Source: Rhodobiaceae bacterium (lineage in GTDB: Bacteria > Pseudomonadota > Alphaproteobacteria > Rhizobiales > NORP267). Taken from it: 64,000 nt of DNA. The stretch lies in assembly GCA_020441905.1 (NCBI GenBank), contig JAGRLG010000046.1, positions 1 through 64,000 on the forward strand. Reading direction: 5' to 3'. Both the position numbers and the translations under genes were made by a program. The notes under the pieces are model-generated. The model ran no database searches. It saw only the letters and a list, made by a program, of their open reading frames with translations, and had not been told where the DNA came from. Shown piece by piece: positions 1,641 through 19,634 of this stretch. Numbering within the stretch: position 1 is the first letter of the stretch; every line of letters starts with the position of its first letter.

Positions 1641-1793
1641 TTATTATCAATGATATATATGGAAAAAACCTTCCGGGTCGTCGCATTTCGGCATCCGCTT
1701 GCTGCTGGAGGTAGGCTCCAGCATTCGTTGACCATAGCACATCGTTCGGGCTACAGTCGAGCTGGACGTATCATCCAGCAGCCCGGGGGATAC
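1641..1793. promoter_or_regulatory. Divergent sspA/sspB intergenic region with a small inverted repeat
   Basis: This A+T-rich gap separates the outward-facing starts of sspA and sspB, so it should hold both promoters. TATCA-A-TGATA, an 11-bp inverted repeat, lies at 1645-1655, only five bases from the sspA start. That would suit a repressor site or a hairpin in the sspA leader. A purine-rich GGGGGA precedes the sspB ATG at 1794. I could not pick confident -35/-10 hexamers. Confidence 0.35.
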
Positions 1794-2753
1794 ATGGCGC
1801 GCGGACCGCTTTTTCAGAATGATTACAGCCCGCAGTTTTCGGGCCACGAAACCTTCCCGCTGCGCTACGGGTGGCTGAAAAAGGCGTTCGACCGCGTCGC
1901 CGAGACCGAGTCCGAAACCGACAACCGCGTTGCGTGTTGGGGAGACGAAGCCATAGCGAAATTCGGCGTCGGCAAAAACATGGTCGGCTCGATGCGCTAT
2001 TGGGCGAACGCCGCCCGCATCATCCGCGAGCCCGCCATCAACTCCGTTGAAACAACCGAGCTTGGACGGTTGCTCTTTAGTTCAAACGGACTCGATCCGT
2101 GGATGGAGTCTCCCGCCACGCTGTGGCTTCTTCACTGGCAGTTCGCGGCATATCACAAGAGAACAACATGGTTCTGGGCATTCAGTCATTATCCCGCCAT
2201 TACGTTTGAGCGGGACGGCTTCATCCGAAAGCTCAACCGCTTTTCAAAAGACCGCGGATGGCCAAGCGCGGCGGAAACCACGCTCAAGAATGACGTTGCC
2301 TGCTTCATCCGCACCTATGTAGCGCGTCAGCCATCTGGAAAGACCGGCCACGACGACGCCCTTGAGTCGCCGCTGACTGAATTGGGGCTCATCAAGGCGA
2401 TAGGCAAGAACGACGGCTTTCGTTTTGTGCGTGGCCCCAAATCGACCCTGAGCGACGGCGTTTTCGCCTATGCCCTTGTTGATTTCTGGTCGCGCTTCTA
2501 TGCCAATGCCGCCACGTTGTCCTTCGAAGCCATCGCACAAGCGCCGGGTAGTCCGGGACGGGTGTTTCAATTCGAAGAGAACGACGTGGCGGATCGTCTT
2601 GCCGTGCTCGACCATGTCACGGACGGTGCGCTCCGGTGGTCGGAGACCGCCGGTCTGAAACAGGTTGTCCGCAGCGTTGAGATCAGCGAAGACGCGGCAC
2701 GGTCCTGGTTGGCTGACGACTACGCTTCGCGTGTCGGAAGGGAGGCCGCCTGA
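1794..2753 (+). CDS. sspB: SspB-like DUF4007 protein
   Basis: The DUF4007 component of SspABCD phosphorothioation. SspB is reported to act as a DNA nickase that lets sulfur enter one strand. It is 319 residues from the chosen ATG and begins with the hallmark FSGHETFPLRYGWLKKAF. An open frame extends upstream to 1530 but overlaps sspA and lacks family similarity, so the ATG at 1794 with GGGGGA upstream is preferred. Its TGA overlaps the sspC ATG by one base (TGATG), indicating coupled translation of sspB and sspC. Confidence 0.85.
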   Translation: MARGPLFQNDYSPQFSGHETFPLRYGWLKKAFDRVAETESETDNRVACWGDEAIAKFGVGKNMVGSMRYWANAARIIREPAINSVETTELGRLLFSSNGLDPWMESPATLWLLHWQFAAYHKRTTWFWAFSHYPAITFERDGFIRKLNRFSKDRGWPSAAETTLKNDVACFIRTYVARQPSGKTGHDDALESPLTELGLIKAIGKNDGFRFVRGPKSTLSDGVFAYALVDFWSRFYANAATLSFEAIAQAPGSPGRVFQFEENDVADRLAVLDHVTDGALRWSETAGLKQVVRSVEISEDAARSWLADDYASRVGREAA

Positions 2754-5700: not shown

Positions 5701-6157
5701 TCGGCTCGACGCTTTCGTCGGCCGGTTGGCCCGGTTCGACGGTTCGGACGAGATCTTCGAGGGTATTGCCAGCCTGGCCGCGAACAAACCGCCGCGCGAC
5801 TGGGTCGATCCCGATCTCGACCAGGCCGCGATCGAGCTTGCAGATATGGCACAGAAATTCCTTCGCGCGGAAACCTATGCGCGCGTGAAGGGCCGTCCTG
5901 ACAAGCGTCACGCCATGGCCGTCGTCATCGGCACGAATGGGCGACCTGCGCCGATGCTTGAGGAGTTTGATGTCGCGGACTCTGATCGTGACGCCGTGAA
6001 CGCGCTCATAGAACGTGTCGAAGCGGCGCTCGATGAGTCCGACACCAGCCGGAGCAGTATAATTCTTGCGGCGTTGGCGGAACTCAGCACGCGCTACATG
6101 CAGGACGCCCTTGCCCCCAAGGCGAATGGGAAACGAAAGGCGGCGCATCATGAGTGA
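2753..6157 (+). CDS. sspC: SspC-like large P-loop ATPase
   Basis: A 1134-residue ATPase matching SspC of the Ssp DNA-phosphorothioation system in size and position. Walker A is GPYGSGKS (61-68) and Walker B is VVLFIDE (168-174), followed by MGKF. The rest is a long region without another motif I can name. SspC is thought to power or coordinate the sulfur-transfer complex on DNA. A strong GGAAGGGAGG precedes the ATG, which overlaps sspB. The 3' end overlaps the next gene by eight bases, so sspB, sspC and the membrane gene form one transcript. Confidence 0.85.
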   Translation: MLLEDRVRIARRFLRSVRIDSDYGDASALEGFVCPHSSADVLTTMARHVAETGQGAFTWTGPYGSGKSSLAVALAALLNGDAGLQKQAKKVFGQGLTNTIWKALPTGTKGWRILPVVGRRADPVTVIGEAVKKAGLVLRVPRGGWTESNLIATLTDAAACKPKTHGGVVLFIDEMGKFLEAAAQDGSDIYILQQLAEAASRSKGRFLIVGVLHQAFDEYAHRLSHDMRDEWAKIQGRFIDLVVDTAGEEQIDLISRAIESDRVAKKPGALASSVAAFARRDRPREDASRLASMLEACWPLHPVVASLLGPISRRRFGQNQRSIFGFLNSSEPHGFQDFLSHTQDDQLYGPDRLWDYLRANLEPSILASPDGHRWALAAEALERCETLGGDALHVRLLKTIAVIDLFKERSGLLPNSELLRSCLSDASTKAIEKALSDLDGWSLTIFKKFLDARSIFAGSDFDIERAVRTALDEIDEIDFEHLKSLAGLQPILAKRHYHETGAMRWFDVNIVPVSGIVEFASGFTPKNGAIGQFLLAIPTDGEKEGRAEKLCREAASHSGKDKGDIVVGISKQSWAVVPLARELIALENVSNDHPELAGDSVARLEVSARLAALQALLETELHKAFDNALWFRKKHHKKRLQQADLNGIASELADRRFPESPRLHNELLNRQQPSGSAIMAQNKLLHHMVVNEGEARLGIDGFPAEGGLFASILEKTGLYVRQGKTFRFVSPVTGDDPCRLAPMWQAAFEHVRENAHRTVTVSELFELWREPPFGIKDGLKPLLAVAFIQSQRDKLAVYREGIFRVRFDDVDADYLAKDASIIQLRWMDLTDIARRLLSDMAEVVRDLDRTNELVHLEPIDVGRGLMSIFEQLPQWTSRTMRLSANAARIRDLFKRAHDPNRFLFDDIPGTLGEDVALETDADLRRVIESVREGLEELVQAYPSMLHRMRDLMLAELQVPNISPQSLAELRDRAENIRQLAGDFRLDAFVGRLARFDGSDEIFEGIASLAANKPPRDWVDPDLDQAAIELADMAQKFLRAETYARVKGRPDKRHAMAVVIGTNGRPAPMLEEFDVADSDRDAVNALIERVEAALDESDTSRSSIILAALAELSTRYMQDALAPKANGKRKAAHHE

Positions 6158-6677
6158 TGAAATAACGAACCGCCACCATCTCTGCTATACACAGAACTTC
6201 GAGCAAGCCCGTAGCTTGAATACGCAGATGAACCACGTCCCTGTACTGGCTATGACGCTTACTGGGGGGTTATGGTTCGGTGCTGGAGTTACAAAAGATC
6301 TTCCTGAGGAAATCAGATTTGCACTTCTGATATTTGCCGGCTTTTGCAACCTGTCCCTCATCTTCGCCGTTTTGCGCATCCGAGACGTTTTGGAAAGCTA
6401 TCTAGAGAAACTTAAAGAGTTTAACCCAGACAGCTTTGCCTCCGGAGAACCCAAAAATCCCAAACTACCGTGGTTGGGGTCCTATAGCATGATATTGATT
6501 TACTGCGCTTTAATGCTGATAGGGTCATTATTTTCATTCGTTGGCGCTTTCTGGATTTACTGGCCATTCGAGTCAGCCCGCTGGATTGGCGTCATACTGC
6601 TGCTCGCTCTTCTCACGGCCATATACCTCACATTATTCAGCCGCAGCACGGCTGCGTCGAAACATGCGGAAAGCTGA
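6150..6677 (+). CDS. Small four-helix membrane protein inserted in the ssp operon
   Basis: A 175-residue protein with about four hydrophobic segments: around VPVLAMTLTGGLWFGAG, IRFALLIFAGFCNLSLIF, SMILIYCALMLIGSLF, and WIGVILLLALLTAIYL near the end. A charged loop lies between helices 2 and 3. The N-terminus (MSDEITNRHHLCYTQNFEQ) is cytoplasmic-looking and has no signal peptide. I do not recognise a named family. It overlaps sspC by eight bases and the following methyltransferase lies two bases beyond it. Base composition is clearly less G+C-rich than sspB/C. Small membrane proteins in defence operons are often effectors that depolarise the membrane; that role here is only inference. Confidence 0.7.
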   Translation: MSDEITNRHHLCYTQNFEQARSLNTQMNHVPVLAMTLTGGLWFGAGVTKDLPEEIRFALLIFAGFCNLSLIFAVLRIRDVLESYLEKLKEFNPDSFASGEPKNPKLPWLGSYSMILIYCALMLIGSLFSFVGAFWIYWPFESARWIGVILLLALLTAIYLTLFSRSTAASKHAES

Positions 6678-6678
6678 T

Positions 6679-7323
6679 ATGCATACGCCGCATCTTGCCT
6701 CTCCGATTGAAGAAGAAAAAGCGACAAGCGAATACTATGAACGCAACGCGCAGACGTATTTTGCGACGACGCTACGCGTTGACATGTCTGCCTTATACAG
6801 CCGCTTTCTAAGGCATGTCGCGCACGGTGGGCGGATACTGGACGCAGGAAGCGGATCCGGACGCGATACGCTCGCATTTCTCCAGCGCGGCTATGAGGTC
6901 GAAGCGTTTGACGCGTCTCCTGCGCTTTGCACACTGAGCACGCAGTTGACCGGTGTTGAAGCCCAAGTTCTCCGTTTTCAGGACTTTGACAGTCCGCCCC
7001 GACACGACGGGATTTGGGCATGCGCATCATTACTACATGTGCCGAAAGACGAGTTGAGGGATGCTGTCAGTCGATTGATCGGAGCGCTCAAACCGGGTGG
7101 CGCATTGTATGTATCGTTCAAGCATGGCGCTGAGGAGCGCATCTCCACTGACGGGCGTTTTTTTCTGGATCTGAACGCGGAGTCTTTACGTCAGCTCTTT
7201 GCGGACTTTCCGAATATGACGCTAGCAGAGGTGTGGCTCTCGGTTGGTGAGGGGACGCATCAGGGAAAGGACGAGTGGCTAAATGCGATAGCCCTGAAGG
7301 CACCTGAGAGGGCCGACCAATGA
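6679..7323 (+). CDS. Class I SAM-dependent methyltransferase in the ssp operon
   Basis: A 214-residue methyltransferase with a Rossmann fold. The SAM motif I is ILDAGSGSGRDTLAF, the acidic residue ending strand 2 is in VEAFDAS, and a post-motif LKPGGALYVSFK is present. It resembles small TehB-like enzymes and lacks an obvious DNA target-recognition domain, so the substrate is unknown. The ATG at 6679 is chosen with GGAAAG upstream; an in-frame ATG at 6664 would overlap the preceding gene. The TGA overlaps the sspD ATG (ATGA at 7320-7323). It shares the lower G+C of the membrane gene before it, suggesting they came as a pair. Confidence 0.8.
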   Translation: MHTPHLASPIEEEKATSEYYERNAQTYFATTLRVDMSALYSRFLRHVAHGGRILDAGSGSGRDTLAFLQRGYEVEAFDASPALCTLSTQLTGVEAQVLRFQDFDSPPRHDGIWACASLLHVPKDELRDAVSRLIGALKPGGALYVSFKHGAEERISTDGRFFLDLNAESLRQLFADFPNMTLAEVWLSVGEGTHQGKDEWLNAIALKAPERADQ

Positions 7324-8165
7324 CCATACAACCGTCGTCGGAAAAGCACGTACTTGGTCTTTCCGGCGGGCGCGACAGCGCGGCGCTTGCCGTCTACATG
7401 CGGCAGCATCATCCCGACCTCGATATCGAGTATTTTTTCACCGACACTGGCAAGGAGCTGCCGGAGGTTTACGAATATCTCGGGCGTCTGGAGGGATTTC
7501 TCGGACAGCCGATACTGCGGCTGAACCCCGACCGCGACTTCGATTTCTGGCTCAAGCAGTATAATGATTTCCTGCCGTCGCCGCAGACGCGCTGGTGCAC
7601 GCGCCAGCTCAAGCTCCGCCCGTTCGAGCGCTGGCTTCGGCCGATGCTCGACGACGGGATGACGATTTACAGCTATGTCGCAATCCGCAGCGACGAGGAA
7701 TACCGGGAAGGGTATTCCTCGAAAAACGATAAGCTCATCGTCATGCTGCCGTTCAAGGAAGCGGGGGTAGATAAAGCGGGCGTTCTCGACATCCTGGAAG
7801 GGGCCGGGCTCGGCTTGCCGAAATACTACGAGTGGCGGACGCGCAGCGGCTGCACCTTCTGTTTTTTCCAGCAAAAAATCGAGTGGGTGCGGCTCAAGGA
7901 GCAACACCCGGAAGCGTTCGAAGAAGCCAAGGCTTATGAGAAGGACGCCGTGGAACATGGCTCGCCCTTCACCTGGAGCCAGGGCGAGTCTCTCGAGGAA
8001 CTGGAGCAGCCCGAGCGCGTCGTGCAGATCAGGGATGATCACGAACAACGGCTAGCGCGGATGAAATCCAAGGTTCAGCCAAACCCGCTCAGGCCGGACA
8101 ACGAGCCACTGGATATCGACGACTTGTACGGCAAGGCGAAAGTCTGTCTAGCATGTCACAAATAA
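7320..8165 (+). CDS. sspD: SspD/DndC-like PAPS-reductase-family protein
   Basis: An ATP-pyrophosphatase/PAPS reductase family member that activates the DNA backbone and passes sulfur into it. The pyrophosphatase motif is SGGRDS (15-20). Cysteines at 93 (RWCTRQLK), 178 and 181 (GCTFC), and 276 and 279 (CLACHK) are candidates for the Fe-S cluster known in DndC. Its 281 residues are short compared with DndC and fit SspD. It is coupled to the upstream methyltransferase by a four-base overlap. Together with sspA, sspB and sspC it makes a complete modification set. Confidence 0.85.
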   Translation: MTIQPSSEKHVLGLSGGRDSAALAVYMRQHHPDLDIEYFFTDTGKELPEVYEYLGRLEGFLGQPILRLNPDRDFDFWLKQYNDFLPSPQTRWCTRQLKLRPFERWLRPMLDDGMTIYSYVAIRSDEEYREGYSSKNDKLIVMLPFKEAGVDKAGVLDILEGAGLGLPKYYEWRTRSGCTFCFFQQKIEWVRLKEQHPEAFEEAKAYEKDAVEHGSPFTWSQGESLEELEQPERVVQIRDDHEQRLARMKSKVQPNPLRPDNEPLDIDDLYGKAKVCLACHK

Positions 8166-8186
8166 AGAAGGTGGGGGCACGGACGT

Positions 8187-8708
8187 TTGGACCTGGACTC
8201 CTTGATAGATTTTGCAAACGAGGCAACCGAGGAAATCGCCAAGTACACGGTTCCCGTCACTTTGTCGCCAGAGAAGATGATGGCGAATGAGCACGCGATT
8301 GCGGCTCTTGCGTGGGAGTCCATCGGCTACGGCGACGAAGAGCTGGACAAGGTTCCTGCCGACAAGCGCGGCATCTACGCCTTCGCGATTTGCAGGAACA
8401 GTGATGTTCTTCCGCCCCACGGATACGTTCTTTACATCGGAATCGCGGGGCGCGATTCCGAACGTCCCCTGAGGGATCGGTATAGGGACTATCTCAATGC
8501 CAGGAAGGTCAAAAAGCGCGCGCGCATCGCACGGATGATCGGAACCTGGCATCAGGTGTTACGGTTCTACTTCGCTCCCATCGACGATGACATTTCTTCA
8601 GATGACCTGAAGGCGCTCGAAAAACAACTCAACACGGCGCTGATGCCGCCGTTCTCCGAAGGAGACCTTGAAGCCGATACAAAACAAAAACGAAGGGCGT
8701 TCCGGTAA
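8187..8708 (+). CDS. GIY-YIG-type nuclease
   Basis: A 173-residue protein whose C-terminal half shows all GIY-YIG landmarks in order: RGIYAF, LYIGIAG, the catalytic Arg in LRDRYRDY, the metal-binding Glu in ALEKQL, and the Asn in NTALMPPF. Such nucleases hydrolyse DNA on one or both strands. The reading frame opens at TTG 8187 with GGTGGGGG upstream; ATG 8278 is an alternative that would remove 30 residues but leave the domain intact. It follows sspD by 21 bases and overlaps the DndB-like gene by one base. I do not know it as a standard Ssp component. It could restrict unmodified DNA or nick at modified sites. Confidence 0.75.
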   Translation: MDLDSLIDFANEATEEIAKYTVPVTLSPEKMMANEHAIAALAWESIGYGDEELDKVPADKRGIYAFAICRNSDVLPPHGYVLYIGIAGRDSERPLRDRYRDYLNARKVKKRARIARMIGTWHQVLRFYFAPIDDDISSDDLKALEKQLNTALMPPFSEGDLEADTKQKRRAFR

Positions 8709-9970
8709 TGACGAAGAAGCACAAAGAAATCGTACTGCCGGCTCTCCGTGGCGTCATGGGAGATTGGGTTTTCTATTCCTGTCTTATGGACGTGGGGGAA
8801 CTGAGTTCGCGCGTCAACTACGCGGAGGAAATTCATAAGAACGAAGCACTTTCGGACATGATACAACGACACCTCAAGAGAGGCCGGGCCGCACAGATCG
8901 CGGATTATCTCAAGAGACAGCCCGAGCGCTTCTTCAATTCCCTTGTCATCGCTACATACGGCGGCCAACCAAACTGGCATGCCCTTTCGGATGTTCGGAG
9001 TAAGACCGCCCCGGACGATCTGAAGAACCTGACCGAGGATACGGTTTCCTCCGTCGGATTTCTAACGTTCACGGGGCAGGAGAAGCTTTTTGCGCTCGAC
9101 GGCCAGCATCGTCTGGCGGGCATCAAGAAGGCTGTGAAAGACGGTCTGGACAACGACCCCTATGATGAACTCTCCGTCATATTCGTCGGACACAAGGAAA
9201 CCAAAAAAGGATTGGAGCGCACACGCCGGTTGTTCACGACCTTGAACAAGACGGCACGACCCGTTTCCAAAGGGGAAATCATCGCCCTCGATGAGGACGA
9301 TGTCATGGCCATTTGCGTAAGGAGACTCATTGAGCAAACGGAACTTTTTGCCGGTAATAGGGTCGCTTTTGTCGCCAGCAACAACATGCCGACCGCCAAC
9401 ACGACCAGTCTAACGACAATCGCCAACCTCTACGACCTGCTGACGATCCTGTTTACCAACGCGCGTTCGGATTTGAGAGAGCAGAAGGCGGATTTGCAGA
9501 GGGTACGTCCGGATGACGAGGTGCTTGAAAGGTATTTCAAGTTGGCCGAGAGCTATTTCGTAGAGCTTAGAAAGAACTTTAAGGCACTGGACGAATTTTT
9601 CAGCGCGAAGAACACCGAACCGGTGGTCAAGAAGTATCGCGGCAGCCACGGGGGACATGTTCTCTTCCGTCCAATCGGACTGGAAATCATGACCCGTGTG
9701 ATTTCCCGCTTCACAAAGGATATGAGCCTGGTGCGCGCCGTTAAGCTGGCGGCCGAGCTTCCGGACAGCCTTAATGAAGAGCCGTTTCAGTGGCTGATGT
9801 GGGAGCCGAACAAAAAGATCATGCTCAATGGCCACAAGGTGACGATACGTGAAGTTCTTTTGTACATGGTCGGGAAGAATGCAAAGAACTACACCGAGGC
9901 GACACTACTTGACAGGTATCAAAGAGAAACCGGCGATGATACGGCGGAACTGCCTGAAAAGATCAGGTGA
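8708..9970 (+). CDS. DndB-like DGQHR-domain protein
   Basis: A 420-residue protein with DGQHR at 131-135 inside FALDGQHRLAGIK, the signature of the DndB family. DndB represses dnd transcription and binds DNA in double-strand phosphorothioation systems. Here it sits in an Ssp-type operon, where sspA and sspBCD alone are normally enough for modification. Its start overlaps the GIY-YIG stop (TAATG), so the two are probably made together. It may regulate the operon or act as the recognition partner of the nuclease. The remaining sequence is rich in helices and has no other motif I can name. Confidence 0.8.
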   Translation: MTKKHKEIVLPALRGVMGDWVFYSCLMDVGELSSRVNYAEEIHKNEALSDMIQRHLKRGRAAQIADYLKRQPERFFNSLVIATYGGQPNWHALSDVRSKTAPDDLKNLTEDTVSSVGFLTFTGQEKLFALDGQHRLAGIKKAVKDGLDNDPYDELSVIFVGHKETKKGLERTRRLFTTLNKTARPVSKGEIIALDEDDVMAICVRRLIEQTELFAGNRVAFVASNNMPTANTTSLTTIANLYDLLTILFTNARSDLREQKADLQRVRPDDEVLERYFKLAESYFVELRKNFKALDEFFSAKNTEPVVKKYRGSHGGHVLFRPIGLEIMTRVISRFTKDMSLVRAVKLAAELPDSLNEEPFQWLMWEPNKKIMLNGHKVTIREVLLYMVGKNAKNYTEATLLDRYQRETGDDTAELPEKIR

Positions 9971-10059
9971 AACGTATGCCGCAAATCGGATGGGCGAGAA
10001 TGGATACGAACGACATGAACACGAAAGGTCAGGCGCATCGCACCCGCCGTGAATGAACC

Positions 10060-11718
10060 ATGACCACATCTACCGACACGCCGGACACCGCACCGGGCAT
10101 CGCGCTTCAAACTCTATTGCGCAACGCCAAGACATCGGCGTTGCGGGAGGTGATCGGTCCGTCGATCGTGGATACGCTTCACGGGCTCGACCCCGAGCTG
10201 GATTCCGGCACGCGGCTCGGGGAGCTGGCCGCCAGCCTTGTCGAACCCTCCGAGGCATTGCGCGATGCGGAGATGCGCGACCGCATCATCCGCATGCTGC
10301 CGTTACCCAAGGCGCGCGAGCTGGGCGGGCATCTCGGCGCGAAAGACGGCCGCACGCTCTACGACGATCTCTGCGCCGCCGCCGCGGACCCCGCGGCGCT
10401 GGCTGTACTGTACTCGTTCTTCGGCGTGGTCCGAGACGTTCGCGCGCCGGCGGACTCTTCACCGGACGCCATGAAGGCGGTTGCCGGTTACGCGCTGTTC
10501 GATCACCAGCGCGCCGCCGCCGAGCGTGTCGTGCACGCGTTGGCCGACGCGCCGCGCAAGGTCATTCTCCATATGCCAACCGGTGCGGGCAAGACCCGCA
10601 CGGCAATGCACATCGTCGCGCAGCATCTTCGCCGGAGCGAGCCGACTGTCGTCTGCTGGCTGGCCCAAAATGCGGAACTTCTCGACCAAGCCGCCGACGA
10701 GTTTGAGAACGCATGGCGTTTCCTCGGCAACCGGGAAACCGGACTCGTTCGGTTCTGGGGACACAGGAAACCGGATGTTCTGGACATACAGGACGGAGTT
10801 ATCGTTTCCGGCCTTGCCAAGATGTCGGCGCTCGACAACCGCGATGCCGCAACCTTGTTGCGTCTGGCCGACCGCGTCTCGTTGACGATCATCGACGAGG
10901 CTCACCAGGCGATTGCGCCGACATACGCGGCGATCCTCACGGCCCTCTACAGCAAGAGGCCGCATAACGCCTTGCTTGGGCTTACGGCTACGCCGGGACG
11001 AAGCTGGTCGGACATAGGCGAGGACCGCAAGCTTTCGGATTATTTCGACGGCCGCAAGGTCACGCTGGAAGTCGAAGGCTACGACGACCCCGTCACCTTC
11101 CTGATCGACCAGAAGTATCTTGCTCGACCGATCTTCCGCACACTCAATTCCGATGCGGGCCTCAAGCTGAGCGAGAACGATGTCAATGTGCTTTCGTCCG
11201 CAATCGACGTGCCGGAACAAATTCTGGAACGTCTGGGTACGGACACGCAGCGCAATCTGAAAATCCTGTCTGCCGTCGAAGACCTGATGACGCGGCACCG
11301 CCGCGTCATCGTGTTCGCGCCCTCTGTGGAGAACGCACGCATGCTTACGGCGATCTTGTCCATACGCGGACATGAAGCATTCGTTGTGACGGGTCAAAGC
11401 AATACAGCAGAACGAGAAAGAATAATCAGGCGTTTTAAAAGTAAAGATAATCGCGCTATGGTGGTTGTTAACTACGGTGTTCTGACCACCGGATTCGATG
11501 CGCCCGCGACAAGCGCGGCCGTCATCGCGCGCCCGACACGCTCGCTTGTTCTTTACAGCCAGATGGTTGGCAGGGCGACGCGCGGCACGCGGGCCGGTGG
11601 AAACGATGAAGCCGAGATTGTAACGGTTGTCGATCCGCACTTGCCCGGCTTTGGCAGCGTTGCCGACGCATTCAAGAACTGGGAGGACGTTTGGGATGAG
11701 CCTGACAGAAGCTGCTGA
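10060..11718 (+). CDS. DEAD/DEAH-box helicase of an SspFGH-like module
   Basis: A superfamily 2 helicase of 552 residues: Walker A PTGAGKT (173-179), motif II DEAH (279-282), motif III LTATPGRSW, and motif VI QMVGRATRG near the C-terminus. The first 140 residues form a separate helical domain. Type III/I-restriction-like helicases of this form translocate on or unwind DNA. It follows the DndB-like gene after 89 bases and overlaps the next gene by 23 bases. Helicase, GHKL ATPase and PLD protein in this order fit the SspFGH restriction module known to accompany sspBCD; which letter belongs to which gene should be checked. Confidence 0.8.
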   Translation: MTTSTDTPDTAPGIALQTLLRNAKTSALREVIGPSIVDTLHGLDPELDSGTRLGELAASLVEPSEALRDAEMRDRIIRMLPLPKARELGGHLGAKDGRTLYDDLCAAAADPAALAVLYSFFGVVRDVRAPADSSPDAMKAVAGYALFDHQRAAAERVVHALADAPRKVILHMPTGAGKTRTAMHIVAQHLRRSEPTVVCWLAQNAELLDQAADEFENAWRFLGNRETGLVRFWGHRKPDVLDIQDGVIVSGLAKMSALDNRDAATLLRLADRVSLTIIDEAHQAIAPTYAAILTALYSKRPHNALLGLTATPGRSWSDIGEDRKLSDYFDGRKVTLEVEGYDDPVTFLIDQKYLARPIFRTLNSDAGLKLSENDVNVLSSAIDVPEQILERLGTDTQRNLKILSAVEDLMTRHRRVIVFAPSVENARMLTAILSIRGHEAFVVTGQSNTAERERIIRRFKSKDNRAMVVVNYGVLTTGFDAPATSAAVIARPTRSLVLYSQMVGRATRGTRAGGNDEAEIVTVVDPHLPGFGSVADAFKNWEDVWDEPDRSC

Positions 11719-13531
11719 GTCGCAAAGGCTCGACGGAGAAATCATTCCGCCTGAACTAGCCGTGAAGGCGATGCGCGACAGCGGCTACAAAAATACCGCA
11801 TACGCGCTCGCGGAGCTGATCGACAATTCCGTTCAGGCGAACGCCAGCAATGTCGAGGTGATCTGCCTTGAGGCGTACCGGCAGGTCAACGAACGCGCCA
11901 GCCGCAGGATTCAGGCAATCGGCATCCTCGATAACGGCGACGGCATGACGCCCGAAACGCTGCGCCTCGCCCTTCAATTCGGGAACGGCACGCATCTGAC
12001 GGACCGGAAGGGTATCGGCCGTTTTGGCATGGGTCTGCCGAATTCCTCGATTTCGCAGTGCCGTCGGGTGGAAGTCTGGACGTGGCAGAACGGTCCGGAC
12101 AACGCCATGTATTCCTATCTCGATGTCGATGAAATCGAGGGGCGGCGCCTGTTCGCCGTTCCGGCCCCCGCGCACAAACCGTTGCCCGAGGAATGGCGTG
12201 CCCGTTCCGACAATGTCGAAACGACCGGCACGCTCGTTCTCTGGAGAAACTTTGACGATCATCGGCTGAGCTGGCGCGGCGCGCTGCCGACGCTGCGCCA
12301 TACGGAATCGCTTGTCGGGCGCATGTACAGAAAGTTCATCGACGACGGGCGACTGTCGATCCGGCTCCTGGCATTGCTCGAAGGCGAGGACGAGTCGACC
12401 TTCGACGAACCGGTGCGCGTCAACGACCCGCTCTACCTGATGCGCAATTCTTCGACGCCGGCGCCGTTCAACACCGAGCCCATGTTTCAGCCCTGGGGCG
12501 ATGCGGACGAGGTCTTCTCCATCGACTACGACGGCGCAAACCACGATGTGGTGGTCCGCATGAGTTGGGCGCGGGAAGAGACCGTGCCCGAGGACAGGAG
12601 CGACCGCGGCTCGAAGCCCTACGGCAAACACGCCGCCAAGAATATTGGCCTGTCCATTGTTCGCGAGGGCCGCGAACTGGACCTTGATCCCGCATGGACC
12701 AACAGCTACGACCCGACCGAACGCTGGTGGGGCGTCGAGGTCGAGTTTCCCTCGACGCTCGACGAGGTGTTCGGCGTTACGAACACCAAACAAAGCGCGA
12801 CGATCTTCTCGCACATGGCACAGTTCGACTGGAAGGCCGAAGCCAATCCCGGTGAATCGCGGTCGGAGTTTCAGGAACGCATACAAGGCGAAGGCGATCC
12901 GCGTGCGATCCTGCTGCCTATCGTCGATCACATACGCGACCAGATTCAGGAGGTGCGAAAGCGCCTCAAGAAACAGAATATCGGGCGGAGGACGAAAGAA
13001 GACCGGCATGACGAGTCGGATGTTTCCGACCTGGCCACGACGAAATTTCGCGAACGCGCCGAACAAGGACACGAGACGGAAGCGGACCGCGAAGAGTTCA
13101 CCGAGAAGGATCGCGACAATCTCGAAAAGGACCTCACCGAAGACAAACACTACAGGCAGGATGTCGCGCATGAAATCGCGCAAGCGACATTCACGCGCAA
13201 GCGGAAGGTGTTGTTCCTTGAAAAGGCGATGGAAGGCTACGCTTTTTTCAATGTCGAGCACAAACAGGGCGGGTTGACCGAAGTTGTTTTCAACAGCAAT
13301 CACCCCTTTTACGACCAGCTCATAGAATCGCTGCGGCCCCAGATCGGCGATGAAACAGACGCCGAGCTGATGGAGCGGATACACACAGCAGCCGACACGC
13401 TGGAACTGCTGTTCGCGGCCTGGGCGCGCTACGAGATGGAGGAAGTGCACCAGAAGAACCGGTTGTTCGAGATGCGGCAGGAATGGGGAAAGATGGCGCG
13501 CTTCTTCCTCACGGAAGAGGACGAAGAATGA
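11696..13531 (+). CDS. GHKL (Hsp90/MORC-like) ATPase of an SspFGH-like module
   Basis: A 611-residue protein with a GHKL ATPase domain at its N-terminus: N-box AYALAELIDNSVQA (Glu40, Asn44), G1 motif ILDNGDGM (78-84), and G2 motif GIGRFGMGLPNSS (106-118). The C-terminal half is highly charged and helical (about residues 430-530) and probably forms coiled coils. Such ATPases clamp on DNA and close on ATP binding. The ATG at 11696 has GGGAGGA eight bases upstream and overlaps the helicase gene. The PLD gene follows after one base. Its role in restriction is inferred from position. Confidence 0.8.
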   Translation: MSLTEAAESQRLDGEIIPPELAVKAMRDSGYKNTAYALAELIDNSVQANASNVEVICLEAYRQVNERASRRIQAIGILDNGDGMTPETLRLALQFGNGTHLTDRKGIGRFGMGLPNSSISQCRRVEVWTWQNGPDNAMYSYLDVDEIEGRRLFAVPAPAHKPLPEEWRARSDNVETTGTLVLWRNFDDHRLSWRGALPTLRHTESLVGRMYRKFIDDGRLSIRLLALLEGEDESTFDEPVRVNDPLYLMRNSSTPAPFNTEPMFQPWGDADEVFSIDYDGANHDVVVRMSWAREETVPEDRSDRGSKPYGKHAAKNIGLSIVREGRELDLDPAWTNSYDPTERWWGVEVEFPSTLDEVFGVTNTKQSATIFSHMAQFDWKAEANPGESRSEFQERIQGEGDPRAILLPIVDHIRDQIQEVRKRLKKQNIGRRTKEDRHDESDVSDLATTKFRERAEQGHETEADREEFTEKDRDNLEKDLTEDKHYRQDVAHEIAQATFTRKRKVLFLEKAMEGYAFFNVEHKQGGLTEVVFNSNHPFYDQLIESLRPQIGDETDAELMERIHTAADTLELLFAAWARYEMEEVHQKNRLFEMRQEWGKMARFFLTEEDEE

Positions 13532-13532
13532 T

Positions 13533-14480
13533 ATGGCGGTTGTCCTTCCCGGCGACGGTATACTTGAACTTCTAAGGGCCGCAAACGACCGGGTGGTCAT
13601 AGCAGCGCCGTACATCAAATCCCCGACCTTCCGCCGGTTGCTGGATGCCGTTCCCGAAACGGTGTCGGCATGCATCTGCGTCACGCGCTGGCTTCCCGAA
13701 GACATCGCCTCCGGCGTCTGTGATCTCGAAATCCTCGACGACGTTGCCGGGGCGCGCGGCGGACGCCTTCTGGTGCATCCGCACCTGCATGCTAAATACT
13801 ACTCGAATGGTCGGGATTCCCTTGTCGGTTCCGCCAATCTCACGGCGCGGGGCCTCGGCTGGCACACGCCCTCCAATGTCGAGTTGCTTGTTTCGCTTCC
13901 GGCCGAGTTCACAGGACTGTCCGAATGGGAACACTCACTGTTGGGCTCCGCTGTGCCAGCCACCGAAGAGTTGCGCGACCGCATTCGCCGGCAGGCGGAC
14001 GCCCTGAAAAAGGACGAGACCCCGCGCCGTCTTCCAGAGGTCGAAGATGACGCCGCGACCCAGGGGGGGCAGACATTGTGGGTGCCGCAATGCCCGACGC
14101 CGGATCGTCTCTGGCAAGTCTATCGCGGGCGCGGCGCCGATACGATGGTGAGCAGCGCGTTCGAGGCGGCGCAGGAGGATCTTGCGGCGCTGTCTCCGCC
14201 GCAGGGGCTGACGCAGGACCTGTTCACCGCCTATGTGGCGGGCATATTGAAACAGATGCCGTTGCTCGCCGAGATAGACAAGCTGGCGGCAGCCGGTTTG
14301 ACGGACACGAAGGCGTACGAGTTTCTGGCCGATAGTCTCGGCACCACGGTGTCGGAAGAGGACCACGCGCAGGTCTGGCGCGTGGTCAAACTCTGGCTGG
14401 TGCATTTCTTCCCCGACTCCTACCGGCTTGAGACCGGCCAGGAAGTGCTGGTCAAAGGCCGTGAATTGCCGCGCCGCTGA
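13533..14480 (+). CDS. Phospholipase D-like nuclease of an SspFGH-like module
   Basis: A 315-residue protein with one HKD motif: HLHAKYY (His86, Lys88), Asp95, then GSANLTARGLGW (99-110). A single HKD motif means the active site would form by dimerisation, as in Nuc/BfiI-type nucleases. It is likely the DNA-cutting subunit of the ATP-driven module and follows the GHKL gene by one base. The C-terminal 150 residues have no motif I recognise. It ends 18 bases from the convergent gene at 14499-15185, so it is the last gene of the sspB-to-PLD operon. Confidence 0.8.
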   Translation: MAVVLPGDGILELLRAANDRVVIAAPYIKSPTFRRLLDAVPETVSACICVTRWLPEDIASGVCDLEILDDVAGARGGRLLVHPHLHAKYYSNGRDSLVGSANLTARGLGWHTPSNVELLVSLPAEFTGLSEWEHSLLGSAVPATEELRDRIRRQADALKKDETPRRLPEVEDDAATQGGQTLWVPQCPTPDRLWQVYRGRGADTMVSSAFEAAQEDLAALSPPQGLTQDLFTAYVAGILKQMPLLAEIDKLAAAGLTDTKAYEFLADSLGTTVSEEDHAQVWRVVKLWLVHFFPDSYRLETGQEVLVKGRELPRR

Positions 14481-14498: not shown

Positions 14499-15185
14499 TC
14501 AGGTCTCGATGCGGCAATCCAGCTTGACCGCTTCCGTGCGCACGCCGGACAGCGTCGCGATGCGCTTGCGCGCCCAGTCCATGACTTCGGCGATCGTATG
14601 CGGTTCGCCTGCGGCGGCTCCGCCGGCTCCTGCGGTGTCGCCGCTCTCCGAACTCTTCGCCGGTTCGCCGTCATGCTTCGCGATCAGCTCTTCGAGGGAA
14701 AAGGTCGCTATCGGCGGATACGCGACCGCCAGTCCCGACCCGACGCTGGCCGGAAGGCCGCGGTCGTCCTCGTCCAGGTTCACCCACATCCCGAAATCGT
14801 CTCTCACCGTCTGTCCGGCCTCGATCCTGGCTGCATAGGACGCGTCGAACCGCTCGCGGGTTTCCGCTGCGTCGAACCTGTGGACCTCGACGTTCCGGGG
14901 ATCGTCGCGGTCATCCACCGCCGCGACGATGACAATGTCCACGTCATCAAGGGTTTTCCATTTCGTGCCCTTCTTCAGGGGCGGGAAGGCGAACCACCTG
15001 TCCTTGGTAGTTCGAATGGACACGCGCCTACGCTGCCCGTTTTCCTCGATTTCCCAGATATTCGACCTGCCCCGTCCGGGCACCCGTTCCGGGATAAAGC
15101 CATTGTCCTCCAGCGCACGTGTGGCTGCGCCGACGAGGATGTTCCATGTTTGTGAATCCGACATATCGTTGAACTGGTTCGACAT
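14499..15185 (-). CDS. Unrecognised soluble protein, convergent to the PLD gene
   Basis: A 228-residue protein of no family I can name. The first 150 residues alternate strands and helices and contain RTTKDRWFAFPPLKKGTKWK and DDVDIVIVAAVDD, reminiscent of small nuclease or ligand-binding folds. A low-complexity Gly/Ala/Ser linker follows, then a short C-terminal helix-rich tail (EVMDWARKRIATLSG). The ATG at 15185 has GGAGAGC upstream on its strand; longer in-frame extensions cross the divergent promoter and are unlikely. It diverges from the GTPase gene across a long dyad, so the pair may be a separate system co-controlled from one site. Confidence 0.65.
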   Translation of the reverse strand: MSNQFNDMSDSQTWNILVGAATRALEDNGFIPERVPGRGRSNIWEIEENGQRRRVSIRTTKDRWFAFPPLKKGTKWKTLDDVDIVIVAAVDDRDDPRNVEVHRFDAAETRERFDASYAARIEAGQTVRDDFGMWVNLDEDDRGLPASVGSGLAVAYPPIATFSLEELIAKHDGEPAKSSESGDTAGAGGAAAGEPHTIAEVMDWARKRIATLSGVRTEAVKLDCRIET

Positions 15186-15231
15186 TGTTCGCTCTCCGCG
15201 TTCGATCAATCGTGTTTCGTGTCTCGAACTA

Positions 15232-15301: not shown

Positions 15302-15516
15302 CGGTATGGCGCGCCCGGCTAGGCCGGGCCGGGTTCTCGTGAACCGAACCCCGTCGGTTGCGGGTTTCGGCCATACGGCTTCGATCCCTCGCGCACAGGG
15401 GCAATGCGGTTCCGGCTGATGCCGCCTGGCCTCCACATTTGCTACAACGTGGTACAACGCTTGACGTCGTCGCCGTTCTCACGTATCAAGGCTGTTCTGG
15501 AACAACGGAGGACAAC

Positions 15517-17790
15517 ATGACGGGTCAATACACGGCATCAAAATCGCAAACCCAGAACAGGCCGGGCTGGAGCATGAGCTTTCGCCACCCGCTGCGGCCC
15601 GACGCGAGAGGCAAGCCGGGCCTGAAGGTGCGTCGCGGTCTCGGCACAGACGATGGAGACGAGGCGGACAGGCTCGTTGCTGAAATGAACGAGATTCTTT
15701 CCGACGAAAGCTGGTGGAACGCCTCGAAGCGTCAGGAGGCCGAGCGCCGGTTCTCCAAGGTCATCGTCGATGCGTTCTACGACGACATCCAGGCCGGCCG
15801 GACCGATACCTGGGCGCTCCGGGAACAGCATATTCCCCTTCCGTCCGCCGAGGACGGCTATTCCAGGGTCATGTTTGTCGGCACCACCGGGGCCGGAAAG
15901 ACTTCTCTGTTGCGGCACTTCATCGGTTCGGACCCCGAGAAGGACCGATTTCCCTCCACCTCGACCGCGAAGACGACGATCTCCGACATCGAGGTCATAC
16001 CCGCCGAAGGGCCTTTCGCCGCTGTGGTCACGTTTTTCTCCGAGCACCGTGTTCAGGCCAATGTCGAAGACTGTCTGGCGGATGCCTGCCTCGCTGTCTG
16101 GGAAGGTGCGCCTGACGAGAAGATCATCGACGAACTGTTAAACCACGACGATCAGAAGTTCCGGCTTGGCTATATTCTCGGCTCGTGGCGAAAGGCGAAG
16201 ACCCGTGTTTCCCAGGACGACTGGTCGTTCGACGATGATTCCGCCGACGACCTCGATTCGTCGGAGAGTCTGGACGACGAAATCCCGGAAGACGAGAGGC
16301 GTGAAAATCAAGCGGCGCTGGAGCGCTACCTTGATCGCATCAAGGCTCTGGCAAGCAAGGTATCTACGGCGATTTCAGGCGAGCTGGGCGAGAACATAAA
16401 GGATTTGAAGGGCTCTGACCGAGACGCCGCAGAAGACCTTTTCGAGGAATACGTTCAGCACGAACCCGATTTTGCGGAGATCGTTCACGATATCCTGGAC
16501 GACGTTCGGTCCCGCTTCGAGTTGATCGAAGCGGGCGACTTGCAACGGCGGCGTTCTGGCTGGCCGGAAATCTGGACCTATGAGACCGAAGACCGCAGCG
16601 ATTTCATCCGCCAGGTCAGGTGGTTTTCCAGCAACTATGCGCCGCAATTCGGTCGCCTCTTGACGCCTCTTGTCGATGGCGTCCGCGCCAAGGGGCCGCT
16701 CTTTCCCGGCTTTGACGACATCCAGCCCCGGCTGGTTCTTCTTGACGGCCAGGGGCTCGGCCATACGCCGGAGTCCTCTTCAAGCGTGACCACCCACATC
16801 ACGCGGCGATACCGCGACGTCGATGTGATCCTTCTTGTCGATAGTGCTCAGAACCCGATGCAGGCGGCGCCCTTGGCCGTGATGCGGTCCGTCGCATCAA
16901 GCGGTCACAACGACAAGCTCGCCATCGCGTTCACGCATTTCGACCAGGTGAAGGGCGACAATCTTCCCCGTTTCGAGGACAAGCGAAATCATGTCCTTGC
17001 CTCGGTCACCAATGCCCTGAGCAGCCTGAAAGATGTTCTCGGCGCTCCGGTCATCAGGGCGTTGGAGCGCGATCTTGACGACCGGTGTTTCATGCTGGGC
17101 GGACTGCACATCGCCACGAACAAGCTTCCCGGTGGCGTCATCAAGGAGATGAACGGGCTTCTCAAATTCTTCGAACGCGCGATTCAACCGCCGCCGCCGC
17201 CGGAAGCCTGTCCTGTCTACGACATTACGGGACTCCTGTTTGCCGTGCAGGCAGCAGCAAACGCCTTTCAACGTCCGTGGAACGCCCGTCTCGGTCTGGG
17301 TAGCCATGAAGGTGTGCGCCGCGAGCACTGGACGAGGGTAAAGGCTCTCAACAGACGTATCGCAGGTGAGCTGGATGACGAGTACGACACGCTTCGTCCG
17401 ATTGCGGACCTCGTGGCGCGGCTGAGCGAGTCGATATCCCGGTTCCTTGACTCACCTACCCGGTGGACACGAGAGCCGGAAGACGAGAGCGAGGCCGAGG
17501 CCGCAATCGCAACTGTGCGACGGGCCGTGTTCAATGACCTCCACGACTTCGTCGCCGGGCGCATGATCGGGGCGCATCTGCCGAACTGGCGCGAGGCGTA
17601 CGAGCTTCGCGGCCGTGGTTCCACTTTTGACAGAGCCCGTGAAATCCGCGGCATCTACGAAGCAGCCGCGCCCGTCCCGACTGCGGTGGTAACGCAACCT
17701 TCCGCCGAGTTCCTGCGCGACATACGGGCGCTCGTCACGCGGTCCATCCAGGACAATGGCGGCGAACTGAGCATGTCGTCAGTCGCCTGA
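15517..17790 (+). CDS. Large GTPase with an integrase-arm-like N-terminus
   Basis: A 757-residue P-loop protein. Residues about 15-62 (RPGWSMSFRHPLRP, GLKVRRGLGT) resemble the arm-type/AP2-like DNA-binding domain that begins many phage integrases. The P-loop GTTGAGKTS is at 122-130, followed by a switch-I-like STSTAKTT. LLDGQGLGH resembles the G3 loop and FTHFDQVKGDN the G4 loop. Two acidic stretches lie around 240-270 (DDDSADDLDSSESLDDE). The ATG at 15517 has CGGAGGA upstream. Dynamin-like and other large GTPases are recurrent in phage defence, but I do not know this architecture. No tyrosine-recombinase catalytic domain is present. Confidence 0.7.
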   Translation: MTGQYTASKSQTQNRPGWSMSFRHPLRPDARGKPGLKVRRGLGTDDGDEADRLVAEMNEILSDESWWNASKRQEAERRFSKVIVDAFYDDIQAGRTDTWALREQHIPLPSAEDGYSRVMFVGTTGAGKTSLLRHFIGSDPEKDRFPSTSTAKTTISDIEVIPAEGPFAAVVTFFSEHRVQANVEDCLADACLAVWEGAPDEKIIDELLNHDDQKFRLGYILGSWRKAKTRVSQDDWSFDDDSADDLDSSESLDDEIPEDERRENQAALERYLDRIKALASKVSTAISGELGENIKDLKGSDRDAAEDLFEEYVQHEPDFAEIVHDILDDVRSRFELIEAGDLQRRRSGWPEIWTYETEDRSDFIRQVRWFSSNYAPQFGRLLTPLVDGVRAKGPLFPGFDDIQPRLVLLDGQGLGHTPESSSSVTTHITRRYRDVDVILLVDSAQNPMQAAPLAVMRSVASSGHNDKLAIAFTHFDQVKGDNLPRFEDKRNHVLASVTNALSSLKDVLGAPVIRALERDLDDRCFMLGGLHIATNKLPGGVIKEMNGLLKFFERAIQPPPPPEACPVYDITGLLFAVQAAANAFQRPWNARLGLGSHEGVRREHWTRVKALNRRIAGELDDEYDTLRPIADLVARLSESISRFLDSPTRWTREPEDESEAEAAIATVRRAVFNDLHDFVAGRMIGAHLPNWREAYELRGRGSTFDRAREIRGIYEAAAPVPTAVVTQPSAEFLRDIRALVTRSIQDNGGELSMSSVA

Positions 17791-18133: not shown

Positions 18134-18685
18134 ATGAGTATTCAATCCATACAACTGGCCGATCTCAGGCCGCCCGCGCACAATCCGCGCCGCGTCATCG
18201 CCGACGATGCGCTGGACGAGCTGGCGGCGAGCATCCACAGCGACGGGCTGCTGCAGAACCTCGTGGTCGCGCCGTCACGCGGCAAGACCTACAAGTTCAT
18301 CAGCGGCGAACGGCGTTTCCGCGCACTGTAGCTGCTGTGCGAGCGCGGCGACATCGACGAGAGCTTCGAGGTTCCCGTCGAAATCCGCAGCAAGCTCAGC
18401 AAACGCGACAAGCTGCGCATCGCCACCGTCGAGAACGTGCAGCGCGAGAATCTGGCCCCGATAGACGAGGCCGAAGCCTTCGCCGAACTGGCGCGCAACG
18501 GTGTTGCGCTCGACGATATCGCGGCCGAGACCGGCAAGTCGGTCAATACCGTGAAACGCCGTCTGGCAATCGCGGGGCTGTGCGACGAGGTCAAACAGGA
18601 GCTGAGCGAGAACCGCATTTCGCTTTCCGTGGCCGAGATCATGACGCTGGGCTCGCATGACCGGCAGCGCGGCATAGACTCCGCA
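18134..18685 (+). pseudogene. ParB/RepB-like partition protein, with amber stop and truncated 3' end
   Basis: The frame opens MSIQSIQLADLRPPAHNPRR with AAAGGAGTCAC upstream and shows the ParB N-terminal nuclease-like motif GERRFRAL. TAG at 18329-18331 then interrupts it. The same frame continues (VENVQRENLAPIDEAEAFAEL, an HTH at DIAAETGKSVNTVKRRL, and SVAEIMTLG), so a single base change explains the stop. Similarity ends near GSHDRQRGI at about 18680, well short of the usual length. ParB-like proteins of this sort are typical of plasmids and integrative elements. It marks the decayed right edge of the island. Confidence 0.8.
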
Positions 18686-18775
18686 ACGAGAAATGGCGTT
18701 CGCGGTCCTTCGAAAGGATGCTTGGATCGCGTTAGACTTCTATGCCGCAGCTTGGAAAAGGCCCTGCTGATATCG

Positions 18776-18799
18776 TTGGTTGCGGGCCCCCGCAACCAA
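18776..18799. repeat. Perfect 11-bp stem hairpin
   Basis: TTGGTTGCGGG, two bases and CCCGCAACCAA form a near-ideal palindrome just beyond the truncated ParB remnant and immediately before a terminator. No tRNA can be folded around it. It may be part of a junction or attachment site, or a second terminator stem. Confidence 0.45.
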
Positions 18800-18801
18800 A
18801 C

Positions 18802-18827
18802 AACCCGCCTTTTTCGGCGGGTTTTTT
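18802..18827 (+). terminator. Rho-independent terminator
   Basis: AACCCGCC, a TTTTTC loop and GGCGGGTT are followed by an unbroken T-run to 18827. The T-run is on the plus strand, so it stops transcription leaving the island toward the convergent bdhA gene. Confidence 0.8.
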
Positions 18828-18851
18828 GTTGCGGTTTTTTGTTGGCGGCGC

Positions 18852-19634
18852 CTATTGCATGAACCAGCCATGAGAAACCACCAGCGACTGGCCGGTGAGA
18901 GCCTTGGTCTTGGTGCCGGCAAGGAAAAGCACGGCTTCGGTGACGTCTTCGAGGGTGGTGAATTCGCCGTCGACGGTGTCTTTGAGCATGACGTTTTTCA
19001 CCACCTCCTCTTCGCTGATGCCCAGTTCCCTGGCCTGTTCGGGGATCTGCTTTTCCACCAGCGGCGTGCGCACGAAACCGGGGCAGACGACATTGGCGCG
19101 CACATTATGCGCCGCGCCTTCCTTGGCCACCGCGCGGGCGAGGCCGACAATTCCGTGCTTGGCGGCGACATAGGCCGCCTTGAGCGGCGAGGCCAGCTTC
19201 GAATGGACCGATCCCATATAGACGATTGCGCCGGAATTGGCGGCATACATATGCTTGAGGCAGGCTCTGGTGGTCAAAAAGGCGCCGTCAAGATGCACGG
19301 CGAGGACCTTCCTCCAGTCGGCATAGGGGAAGGAGACGACGGGGTGGACGATCTGGATGCCGGCATTTGAAACCAGAACGTCGATGCGGCCCCAGGCGGC
19401 GTGAACGGCTTCGACGCCGGCATTGACGGCGGCCTCGTCGCTGACATCCATGGCAATGCCCATGGCGATACCGCCCGCGTCGGAAATTTTCGCGGCGGCG
19501 GTCCTGGCGGCCTCCAGGTTCAGGTCGGCGATGGCGACCCTGGCGCCTTCCCTGGCAAAGCCATGGGCGATTTCCCTGCCGATGCCGCTTGCGGCTCCGG
19601 TGACGATAACAACCTGGTCCTGGAAGCGGCTCAT
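18852..19634 (-). CDS. bdhA: 3-Hydroxybutyrate dehydrogenase-like SDR
   Basis: A 260-residue short-chain dehydrogenase that interconverts (R)-3-hydroxybutyrate and acetoacetate with NAD in polyhydroxybutyrate turnover. The nucleotide motif is VTGAASGIGREIA, the structural motif VSNAGIQ, and the catalytic set Ser in MGSVHSK and YVAAKHG (the Tyr-x-x-x-Lys). The C-terminus ALTGQSLVVSHGWFMQ is the classic BdhA ending. The adjacent patatin-type lipase fits a lipid/PHB setting but is a separate transcript with a 168-base gap. That gap holds a perfect 12-bp palindrome (GTCACCGGTGAC at 19733-19744) and no gene. Confidence 0.85.
   Translation of the reverse strand: MSRFQDQVVIVTGAASGIGREIAHGFAREGARVAIADLNLEAARTAAAKISDAGGIAMGIAMDVSDEAAVNAGVEAVHAAWGRIDVLVSNAGIQIVHPVVSFPYADWRKVLAVHLDGAFLTTRACLKHMYAANSGAIVYMGSVHSKLASPLKAAYVAAKHGIVGLARAVAKEGAAHNVRANVVCPGFVRTPLVEKQIPEQARELGISEEEVVKNVMLKDTVDGEFTTLEDVTEAVLFLAGTKTKALTGQSLVVSHGWFMQ

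What the first reader, a model, noticed from the sequence alone, without database searches (positions are those of the whole stretch)
15517..17790. Integrase-arm-like domain fused to a large GTPase
The first 60 residues look like the arm-type DNA-binding domain of tyrosine integrases, yet what follows is a P-loop with Ras-like switch and specificity loops rather than a recombinase. DNA-binding GTPases next to a defence operon could sense incoming DNA. I know no described family with this order.
Basis: partly seen in the sequence, partly recalled or inferred. Interest (0 to 1): 0.72.

Follow-up and report, generated by a model that had tools for sequence, protein, structure and literature searches.

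The report
Promoter-binding dynamin-like GTPase gene
This gene encodes a bacterial relative of the membrane-remodelling dynamins that carries a phage-integrase-type DNA-binding domain at its front end, and the DNA just before the gene carries a conserved set of repeats found almost only in members with that domain, so the protein probably switches its own gene off and may be a mobile anti-virus protein of a kind not described in the literature searched.

Summary
The ORF (15517-17790, 757 aa) and its two-part architecture are real and conserved in more than 60 related loci across at least nine phyla, plasmids and viral contigs. Residues 1-65 match the N-terminal DUF6538 domain of tyrosine integrases by profile comparison (hhalign P 9e-7, score 34; every control 13.5 or less). 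The rest is not Ras-like but dynamin-like (predicted fold: BDLP, mitofusin, CjDLP, Z about 16-17). The gene is an orphan: no gene of the neighbouring Ssp phosphorothioation island accompanies it elsewhere. The decisive new observation is in the DNA: arm-bearing members carry tandem GTTGTWCC octamers, spaced 10-11 bp, upstream of the -35 box and, inverted, between the -10 box and ATG. Exact sites: 68 against 0.4 expected. A tandem pair is present in 49 of 52 arm-bearing and 0 of 10 arm-less members (about five separate groups); three hold-out members also carry the sites. The arm domain therefore most likely binds its own promoter rather than sensing incoming DNA in general. A defence role is suggested by context (an arm-less relative fused to PtuA beside PtuB; GmrSD, CBASS and BREX neighbours) but is untested.

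The parts
15517..17790 (+). Dynamin-like GTPase with N-terminal integrase-arm-like DNA-binding domain (757 aa)
   Evidence: ORF and translation; family of full-length relatives; AlphaFold2 model, mean pLDDT 85, pTM 0.80
15517..15711 (+). Arm-like domain, residues 1-65; predicted strands 7-11, 18-28, 34-38 and helix 47-62; basic strand region 15-44 (9 K/R/H, 1 D/E)
   Evidence: hhalign against DUF6538: prob 91, P 9e-7, score 33.9; controls 13.5 or less; model; charge count
15853..17760 (+). Dynamin-like G domain and helical region, residues 113-748, with a mostly helical insert of about 230 residues between the strand after switch I and the Walker B strand
   Evidence: Foldseek SynDLP E 2e-6; VIA Z 16.8 CjDLP, 16.7 Mfn2, 15.8 BDLP with 378 residues aligned
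15441..15458 (-). Upstream tandem operator pair GTTGTACC-AC-GTTGTAGC (10-bp period), ending 2 bp before the -35 hexamer; orientation opposite to most relatives
   Evidence: One mismatch to GTTGTWCCNNGTTGTWCC; window scan and own-genome scan; conserved across the family
15461..15489 (+). Likely promoter: -35 TTGACG (15461-15466), 17-nt spacer, -10 TATCAA (15484-15489)
   Evidence: Sequence; TTGA[CT] hexamer found in 31 of 32 arm-bearing upstream regions; the generic promoter scan did not call it
15499..15516 (-). Downstream tandem operator pair GTTGTCCT-CC-GTTGTTCC (GGAACAACGGAGGACAAC on +), overlapping the ribosome-binding site
   Evidence: Two mismatches; one of only three matches in the 2.8-Mb genome with up to 2 mismatches, two of which are this promoter

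Best explanation
The protein is a horizontally mobile, usually stand-alone dynamin-like GTPase whose N-terminal integrase-arm-like domain binds tandem 10-11-bp GTTGTWCC repeats in its own promoter. One repeat pair lies just upstream of the -35 box and an inverted pair lies between the -10 box and the start codon. GTP-dependent dimerisation of the G domains would bring the two occupied pairs together and close the promoter, so the gene is self-repressed. A change in GTP state, or engagement of an infection cue, would release the protein, raise its expression and let the dynamin-like part act, most likely in defence against phage or other mobile DNA. Shown by computation: the ORF, the conserved fusion, the profile similarity to integrase N-termini, the predicted dynamin-like fold, and the conserved operator with its tie to the arm domain. 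Inferred: that this protein is what binds the operator, that binding represses, that GTP controls it, and that the output is defence.
For: Arm homology: hhalign against DUF6538 P 9e-7, controls 13.5 or less; 12 of 18 DUF6538 proteins carry Phage_integrase; the only non-family ORF hit by the arm profile in the loci is a tyrosine integrase. Dynamin fold. Operator: 68 exact sites against 0.4 expected (maximum 2 in 100 shuffles), 10- or 11-bp tandem period, 4 tandem pairs in 542,595 bp elsewhere; octamer information profile. Linkage: a tandem pair in 49 of 52 arm-bearing and 0 of 10 arm-less members; 5 changes of the arm state on the tree, and the operator never goes the other way. Hold-outs: all three new arm-bearing members carry octamers on both sides of the -35 box, L137 with one intact octamer per pair. 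Specificity: only this promoter stands out in the own genome; all 12 viral contigs with the four-site operator are contigs already found to carry the GTPase. Defence context.
Against: There are no binding, expression or infection data. The structural comparison of the arm domain alone was inconclusive. The sign test on independent arm losses has only 4 usable pairs (p 0.125). The G4 motif is THFD, not NKxD or TKxD, so nucleotide specificity is uncertain. No hydrophobic stretch suggests a membrane anchor, so the dynamin-like action is unknown. The upstream pair in the window and L137 is inverted relative to most relatives. The defence context has no background control, and Bradyrhizobium and G094 members sit among metabolic genes.
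Confidence: 0.6

Rival explanations
1. The arm-like domain recognises invading phage or plasmid DNA directly and the GTPase acts on that DNA.
For: Members occur in defence islands and beside restriction genes; arm domains bind DNA in integrases.
Against: The apparent cognate sites lie in the gene's own promoter; viral contigs with the four-site operator are exactly contigs that already carry the gene. Single octamers in phage genomes were not surveyed.
Confidence: 0.12
2. A host regulator, not this protein, binds the octamers; the arm-like domain has another role, such as protein or RNA binding.
For: Binding by the protein itself is inferred only; arm-less members are few and mostly on divergent branches.
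Against: The operator is kept across at least nine phyla with different regulators and no conserved neighbour; it is absent in every arm-less group; the repeat layout resembles tandem arm-type sites (general knowledge of integrases).
Confidence: 0.15
3. It is a one-protein partition or tethering system: the repeats act as a centromere-like site and the GTPase moves or anchors the element, with autoregulation as a by-product.
For: Found on plasmids and viral contigs; DNA-binding NTPases with autoregulated upstream repeats are typical of partition loci (general knowledge); E. coli CrfC is a dynamin-family protein active in nucleoid partition (PMC6374313).
Against: Several members are chromosomal, for example L012 and L141; the repeats embrace a promoter; arm-less relatives pair with nuclease systems instead.
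Confidence: 0.08

Closest known systems
Bacterial dynamin-like proteins (BDLP 2j69, CjDLP1/2 5owv/5oxf, SynDLP 7zw6, IniA 6j73) and mitofusins
   Same: Predicted G-domain fold and following helices (Z 14-17; BDLP aligned over residues 113-748); P-loop and DxxG.
   Different: N-terminal arm-like domain, about 230-residue insert inside the G domain, THFD in place of the G4 consensus, no evident membrane segment, own operator.
Tyrosine integrase N-terminal (DUF6538 / arm-type) DNA-binding domain
   Same: Profile similarity over residues 20-62, predicted strand-strand-strand-helix order, tandem roughly 10-bp repeats as likely targets.
   Different: No recombinase domain; attached to a GTPase; sites flank a promoter, not attachment sites.
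Bacterial dynamins with a reported phage or accessory role: DynA of B. subtilis (PMC8844932); LeoABC (PMC4159319)
   Same: Dynamin superfamily GTPases; DynA delays lysis and phage release.
   Different: PADLOC LeoA/LeoBC profiles touch only the P-loop (E about 0.007-0.008); no integrase-type domain or operator is mentioned in what was read of these papers.
E. coli CrfC (YjdA)
   Same: A dynamin-family protein working on DNA-associated structures; homo-oligomers bind the polymerase clamp (PMC6374313).
   Different: Its DNA association is through the clamp and nucleoid-associated proteins, not a fused sequence-specific domain; not compared by sequence here.
Septu (PtuA/PtuB)
   Same: A distant arm-less relative is fused to a PtuA-like ATPase and followed by a PtuB-like HNH gene (L133).
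   Different: The window protein has no ATPase or nuclease part.

Membership tests
Dynamin superfamily | Dynamin-type G-domain fold | tested here: met
   Top matches are bacterial DLPs and mitofusins; Z 16.8 over 251 residues, 3.8 A; based on a predicted model
Dynamin superfamily | G1, G2 and G3 nucleotide motifs | tested here: met
   GTTGAGKT, invariant T153/T154, D410-G-x-G413 in the alignment
Dynamin superfamily | G4 motif of the (N/T)KxD kind | tested here: inconclusive
   Invariant T473-H-F-D476; Lys replaced by His
Dynamin superfamily | Helical neck/trunk after the G domain | tested here: inconclusive
   BDLP aligned through residue 748, but loosely (378 residues, 6.1 A)
Dynamin superfamily | Membrane binding and assembly-stimulated hydrolysis | not testable with these tools
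   No hydrophobic segment found; needs biochemistry
Integrase arm-type DNA-binding domain (DUF6538-like) | Significant profile similarity | tested here: met
   hhalign prob 85-91, P 6e-6 to 9e-7, against shuffled, reversed and off-target controls; Pfam DUF6538 alone matches 13 of 28 members only weakly (best E 0.0068)
Integrase arm-type DNA-binding domain (DUF6538-like) | Three-stranded sheet plus helix | tested here: inconclusive
   Strand order predicted in both models, but no arm or AP2 structure ranks significantly
Tyrosine recombinase | Catalytic R-H-R-Y domain | tested here: not met
   No Phage_integrase match; the remainder is a GTPase
LeoABC | Full-length profile match | tested here: not met
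   Only P-loop residues match, E 0.0068-0.0084
Ssp phosphorothioation system | Conserved genetic linkage to ssp genes | tested here: not met
   No window ssp or effector gene within 10 kb of other members

The most novel reading that the evidence does not exclude
A single-protein immune switch: a dynamin-like GTPase that holds its own promoter closed by GTP-controlled bridging of two tandem operator pairs, so the repressor is also sensor and effector, and infection releases it for action. This would be a sequence-specific DNA-binding dynamin.
Probability: 0.3. Interest if true: 0.85.

Novelty: new variant of a known kind. Interest (0 to 1): 0.72.

Why it matters
Dynamin-family proteins are known mainly as membrane remodellers. 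A widespread family that carries an integrase-derived DNA-binding domain and a matching operator would put sequence-specific DNA binding and self-regulation into this superfamily, and it gives a compact system (one gene, one 76-bp operator) that can be tested directly. The operator also supplies a strict signature for finding and delimiting the family.

Tried and rejected
Membership in the neighbouring Ssp operon: rejected, no shared neighbours. Ras-like or housekeeping GTPase: rejected by fold search and family libraries. Structure search with the N-terminal domain alone: no significant hit; top rows are enolases, an intein and PX domains, and one AP2 protein at Z 4.0 is within noise. DUF6538 in the own genome: only background. 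PHROGs: nothing for the family, one weak hit at 0.003 for the distant L133. Phage records: no homologue in 50,697. Viral proteins by fold: mainly giant-virus dynamins and other GTPases. The extra hit L140 of the arm profile (E 0.003) has in-frame stops and was set aside as chance or debris. The apparent arm hit of L037 was discounted as an artefact of that row being in the profile. Literature searches found no described protein of this order, but only open papers are held.

Full report
Observation. The ORF at 15517-17790 (+) is 757 codons long, starts with ATG and follows a ribosome-binding site. It matches no Pfam, NCBIfam or PADLOC family beyond its P-loop, no PHROG and no PDB sequence significantly. 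A genome scan returned 42 related loci, many of them full length, from Pseudomonadota, Chloroflexota, Cyanobacteriota, Actinomycetota, Bacillota, Latescibacterota, Verrucomicrobiota, Myxococcota, Bacteroidota and others. Eleven plasmids and 16 viral contigs also carry it, but none of 60 relatives, mostly of the same order, and no annotated phage. It is rare and horizontally spread.

N-terminal domain. Residues 1-65 are among the well-conserved parts (YTASKSR..RPGWSVxFRHPxRxDxxGxxGLKVRRGLGTxDxxEADxLVxQLN). Pfam DUF6538 matches 13 of 28 members weakly (best E 0.0068). DUF6538 members were collected independently from other genomes; 12 of 18 of those proteins carry a Phage_integrase domain. Profile-profile comparison gives probability 85-91 and P 6e-6 to 9e-7. 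Forty column shuffles, reversed profiles, other segments of the GTPase and other segments of the integrases score at most 13.5 against 33.9. Among the ORFs of the loci, the arm profile's only hit outside the family is a tyrosine integrase start (E 2.9e-4). The models show three strands and a helix and the strand region is basic, but comparison of the isolated domain with solved structures was uninformative. So the arm claim rests on sequence profiles, not on structure search.

GTPase. AlphaFold2 with an alignment of 38 sequences gives mean pLDDT 85 and pTM 0.80. The best matches are bacterial dynamin-like proteins and mitofusins (Foldseek SynDLP E 2e-6; VIA Z 16.8 CjDLP1, 16.7 Mfn2, 15.8 BDLP over residues 113-748, 14.3 IniA). 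A mostly helical insert of about 230 residues separates the strand after switch I from the Walker B strand. G4 reads THFD. No hydrophobic stretch points to a membrane segment.

Context. None of the window's Ssp-type genes (SspA, SspB, SspC, SspD, DndB-like, helicase, GHKL ATPase, PLD) is found near other members, and no neighbour is shared across the family as a whole; the few shared neighbours are confined to close relatives such as the Rhodobacterales group. The class relative G094 has the GTPase alone beside an aconitase-like gene (name from sequence resemblance). The gene is therefore an orphan that happens to sit beside this island. Elsewhere it lies near MmeI-type restriction, a CBASS-type phospholipase with a nucleotidyltransferase (L047), BREX (L050), type I restriction (L135) and GmrSD (L035). 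A distant arm-less relative is fused to a PtuA-like ATPase and followed by a PtuB-like HNH gene (L133), and another precedes an AAA_15 ATPase (L039). No background rate for defence genes was measured, so this is suggestive only; Bradyrhizobium and G094 members sit among metabolic genes.

Operator. Reading the upstream DNA of the relatives showed octamers GTTGTWCC in tandem. In 34 arm-bearing upstream regions there are 68 exact sites against 0.4 expected (maximum 2 in 100 dinucleotide shuffles) and 124 with up to one mismatch against 9. All 34 have at least two; 32 have a tandem pair with a 10- or 11-bp period; 25 have pairs in both orientations; only 4 tandem pairs occur in 542,595 bp of the rest of the loci. 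The motif was read off these same regions, so the shuffle excess overstates its significance somewhat; the hold-outs below are the cleaner test. A TTGA[CT] -35 hexamer is present in 31 of 32 regions, typically between the two pairs. In the window the pairs are 15441-15458 and 15499-15516, around TTGACG-17-TATCAA. In the 2.8-Mb genome only three places match within two mismatches and two are these; the backward control pattern gives seven, so the significance lies in position and conservation, not in the count. A pattern for the full four-site operator hits 12 viral contigs, all of them contigs already found to carry the GTPase.

Linkage of arm and operator. Over 62 rows, 49 of 52 arm-bearing members have a tandem pair; the three without are L007 and L012, which keep degenerate or single sites, and L040, whose arm is truncated. 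None of 10 arm-less members has one. The tree needs five changes of the arm state. In independent pairs the operator follows the arm in 3.7 of 4 and never goes the other way, though four pairs cannot reach significance. Three new arm-bearing members found later have octamers on both sides of the -35 box, L137 with one intact octamer in each pair. In Azospirillum the operator lies ahead of a DUF4258 gene that precedes the GTPase.

Mechanism. The simplest reading is self-repression by the protein's own arm domains, with G-domain dimerisation bridging two pairs that embrace the promoter; the downstream pair also covers the ribosome site. Which molecule binds, the direction of regulation and the role of GTP are inferred. 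Defence is likely (about one in two) but not shown. Rivals are general DNA sensing, an unrelated regulator and a partition role.

Known relatives. DynA, a B. subtilis dynamin, delays lysis and phage release (PMC8844932); LeoABC are bacterial dynamins (PMC4159319); CrfC, a dynamin-family protein, binds the polymerase clamp (PMC6374313). In what was read of these papers none is said to carry a fused sequence-specific DNA-binding domain.

Noticed in passing
window 453-14480: An Ssp phosphorothioation module (SspA, SspB, SspC, SspD; PADLOC E 1e-105 or better) is followed by an unusual effector set: DndB-like DGQHR protein, RadD/PbeA-like helicase, GHKL (MzaB/MORC-like) ATPase and PLD-family protein; no SspE or SspFGH was recognised among the genes scanned.
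   Followed up: partly
window 6150-7323: Between SspC and SspD lie a small, probably membrane, protein and a methyltransferase-like gene resembling mad2 (PADLOC 1.3e-13).
   Followed up: no
window 14499-15188 (-): A 229-aa gene divergent from the GTPase with no family match; not conserved beside other GTPase members.
   Followed up: partly
L133:335-4019: Distant arm-less relative: GTPase fused to a PtuA-like ATPase, followed by a PtuB-like HNH gene, i.e. a Septu-like system with a fused dynamin-like GTPase.
   Followed up: partly
L039:9992-13820: Bacteroidales arm-less GTPase followed a few bases later by an AAA_15 ATPase gene and an overlapping 208-aa gene of unknown kind.
   Followed up: partly
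L049:11566-11989: In Azospirillum the operator precedes a DUF4258 gene that lies between it and the GTPase.
   Followed up: no
L132:1993-3993 and L022: One SAR202 genome (G559) holds two copies, one with and one without the arm domain.
   Followed up: no
L048:14269-16062: A 598-aa protein without family match begins 13 bp after the GTPase in Rhizobium, in the same direction.
   Followed up: no
window 18207-18862: ORFs resembling parts of ParB/RepB by eye follow the GTPase, possibly a plasmid-derived remnant.
   Followed up: no
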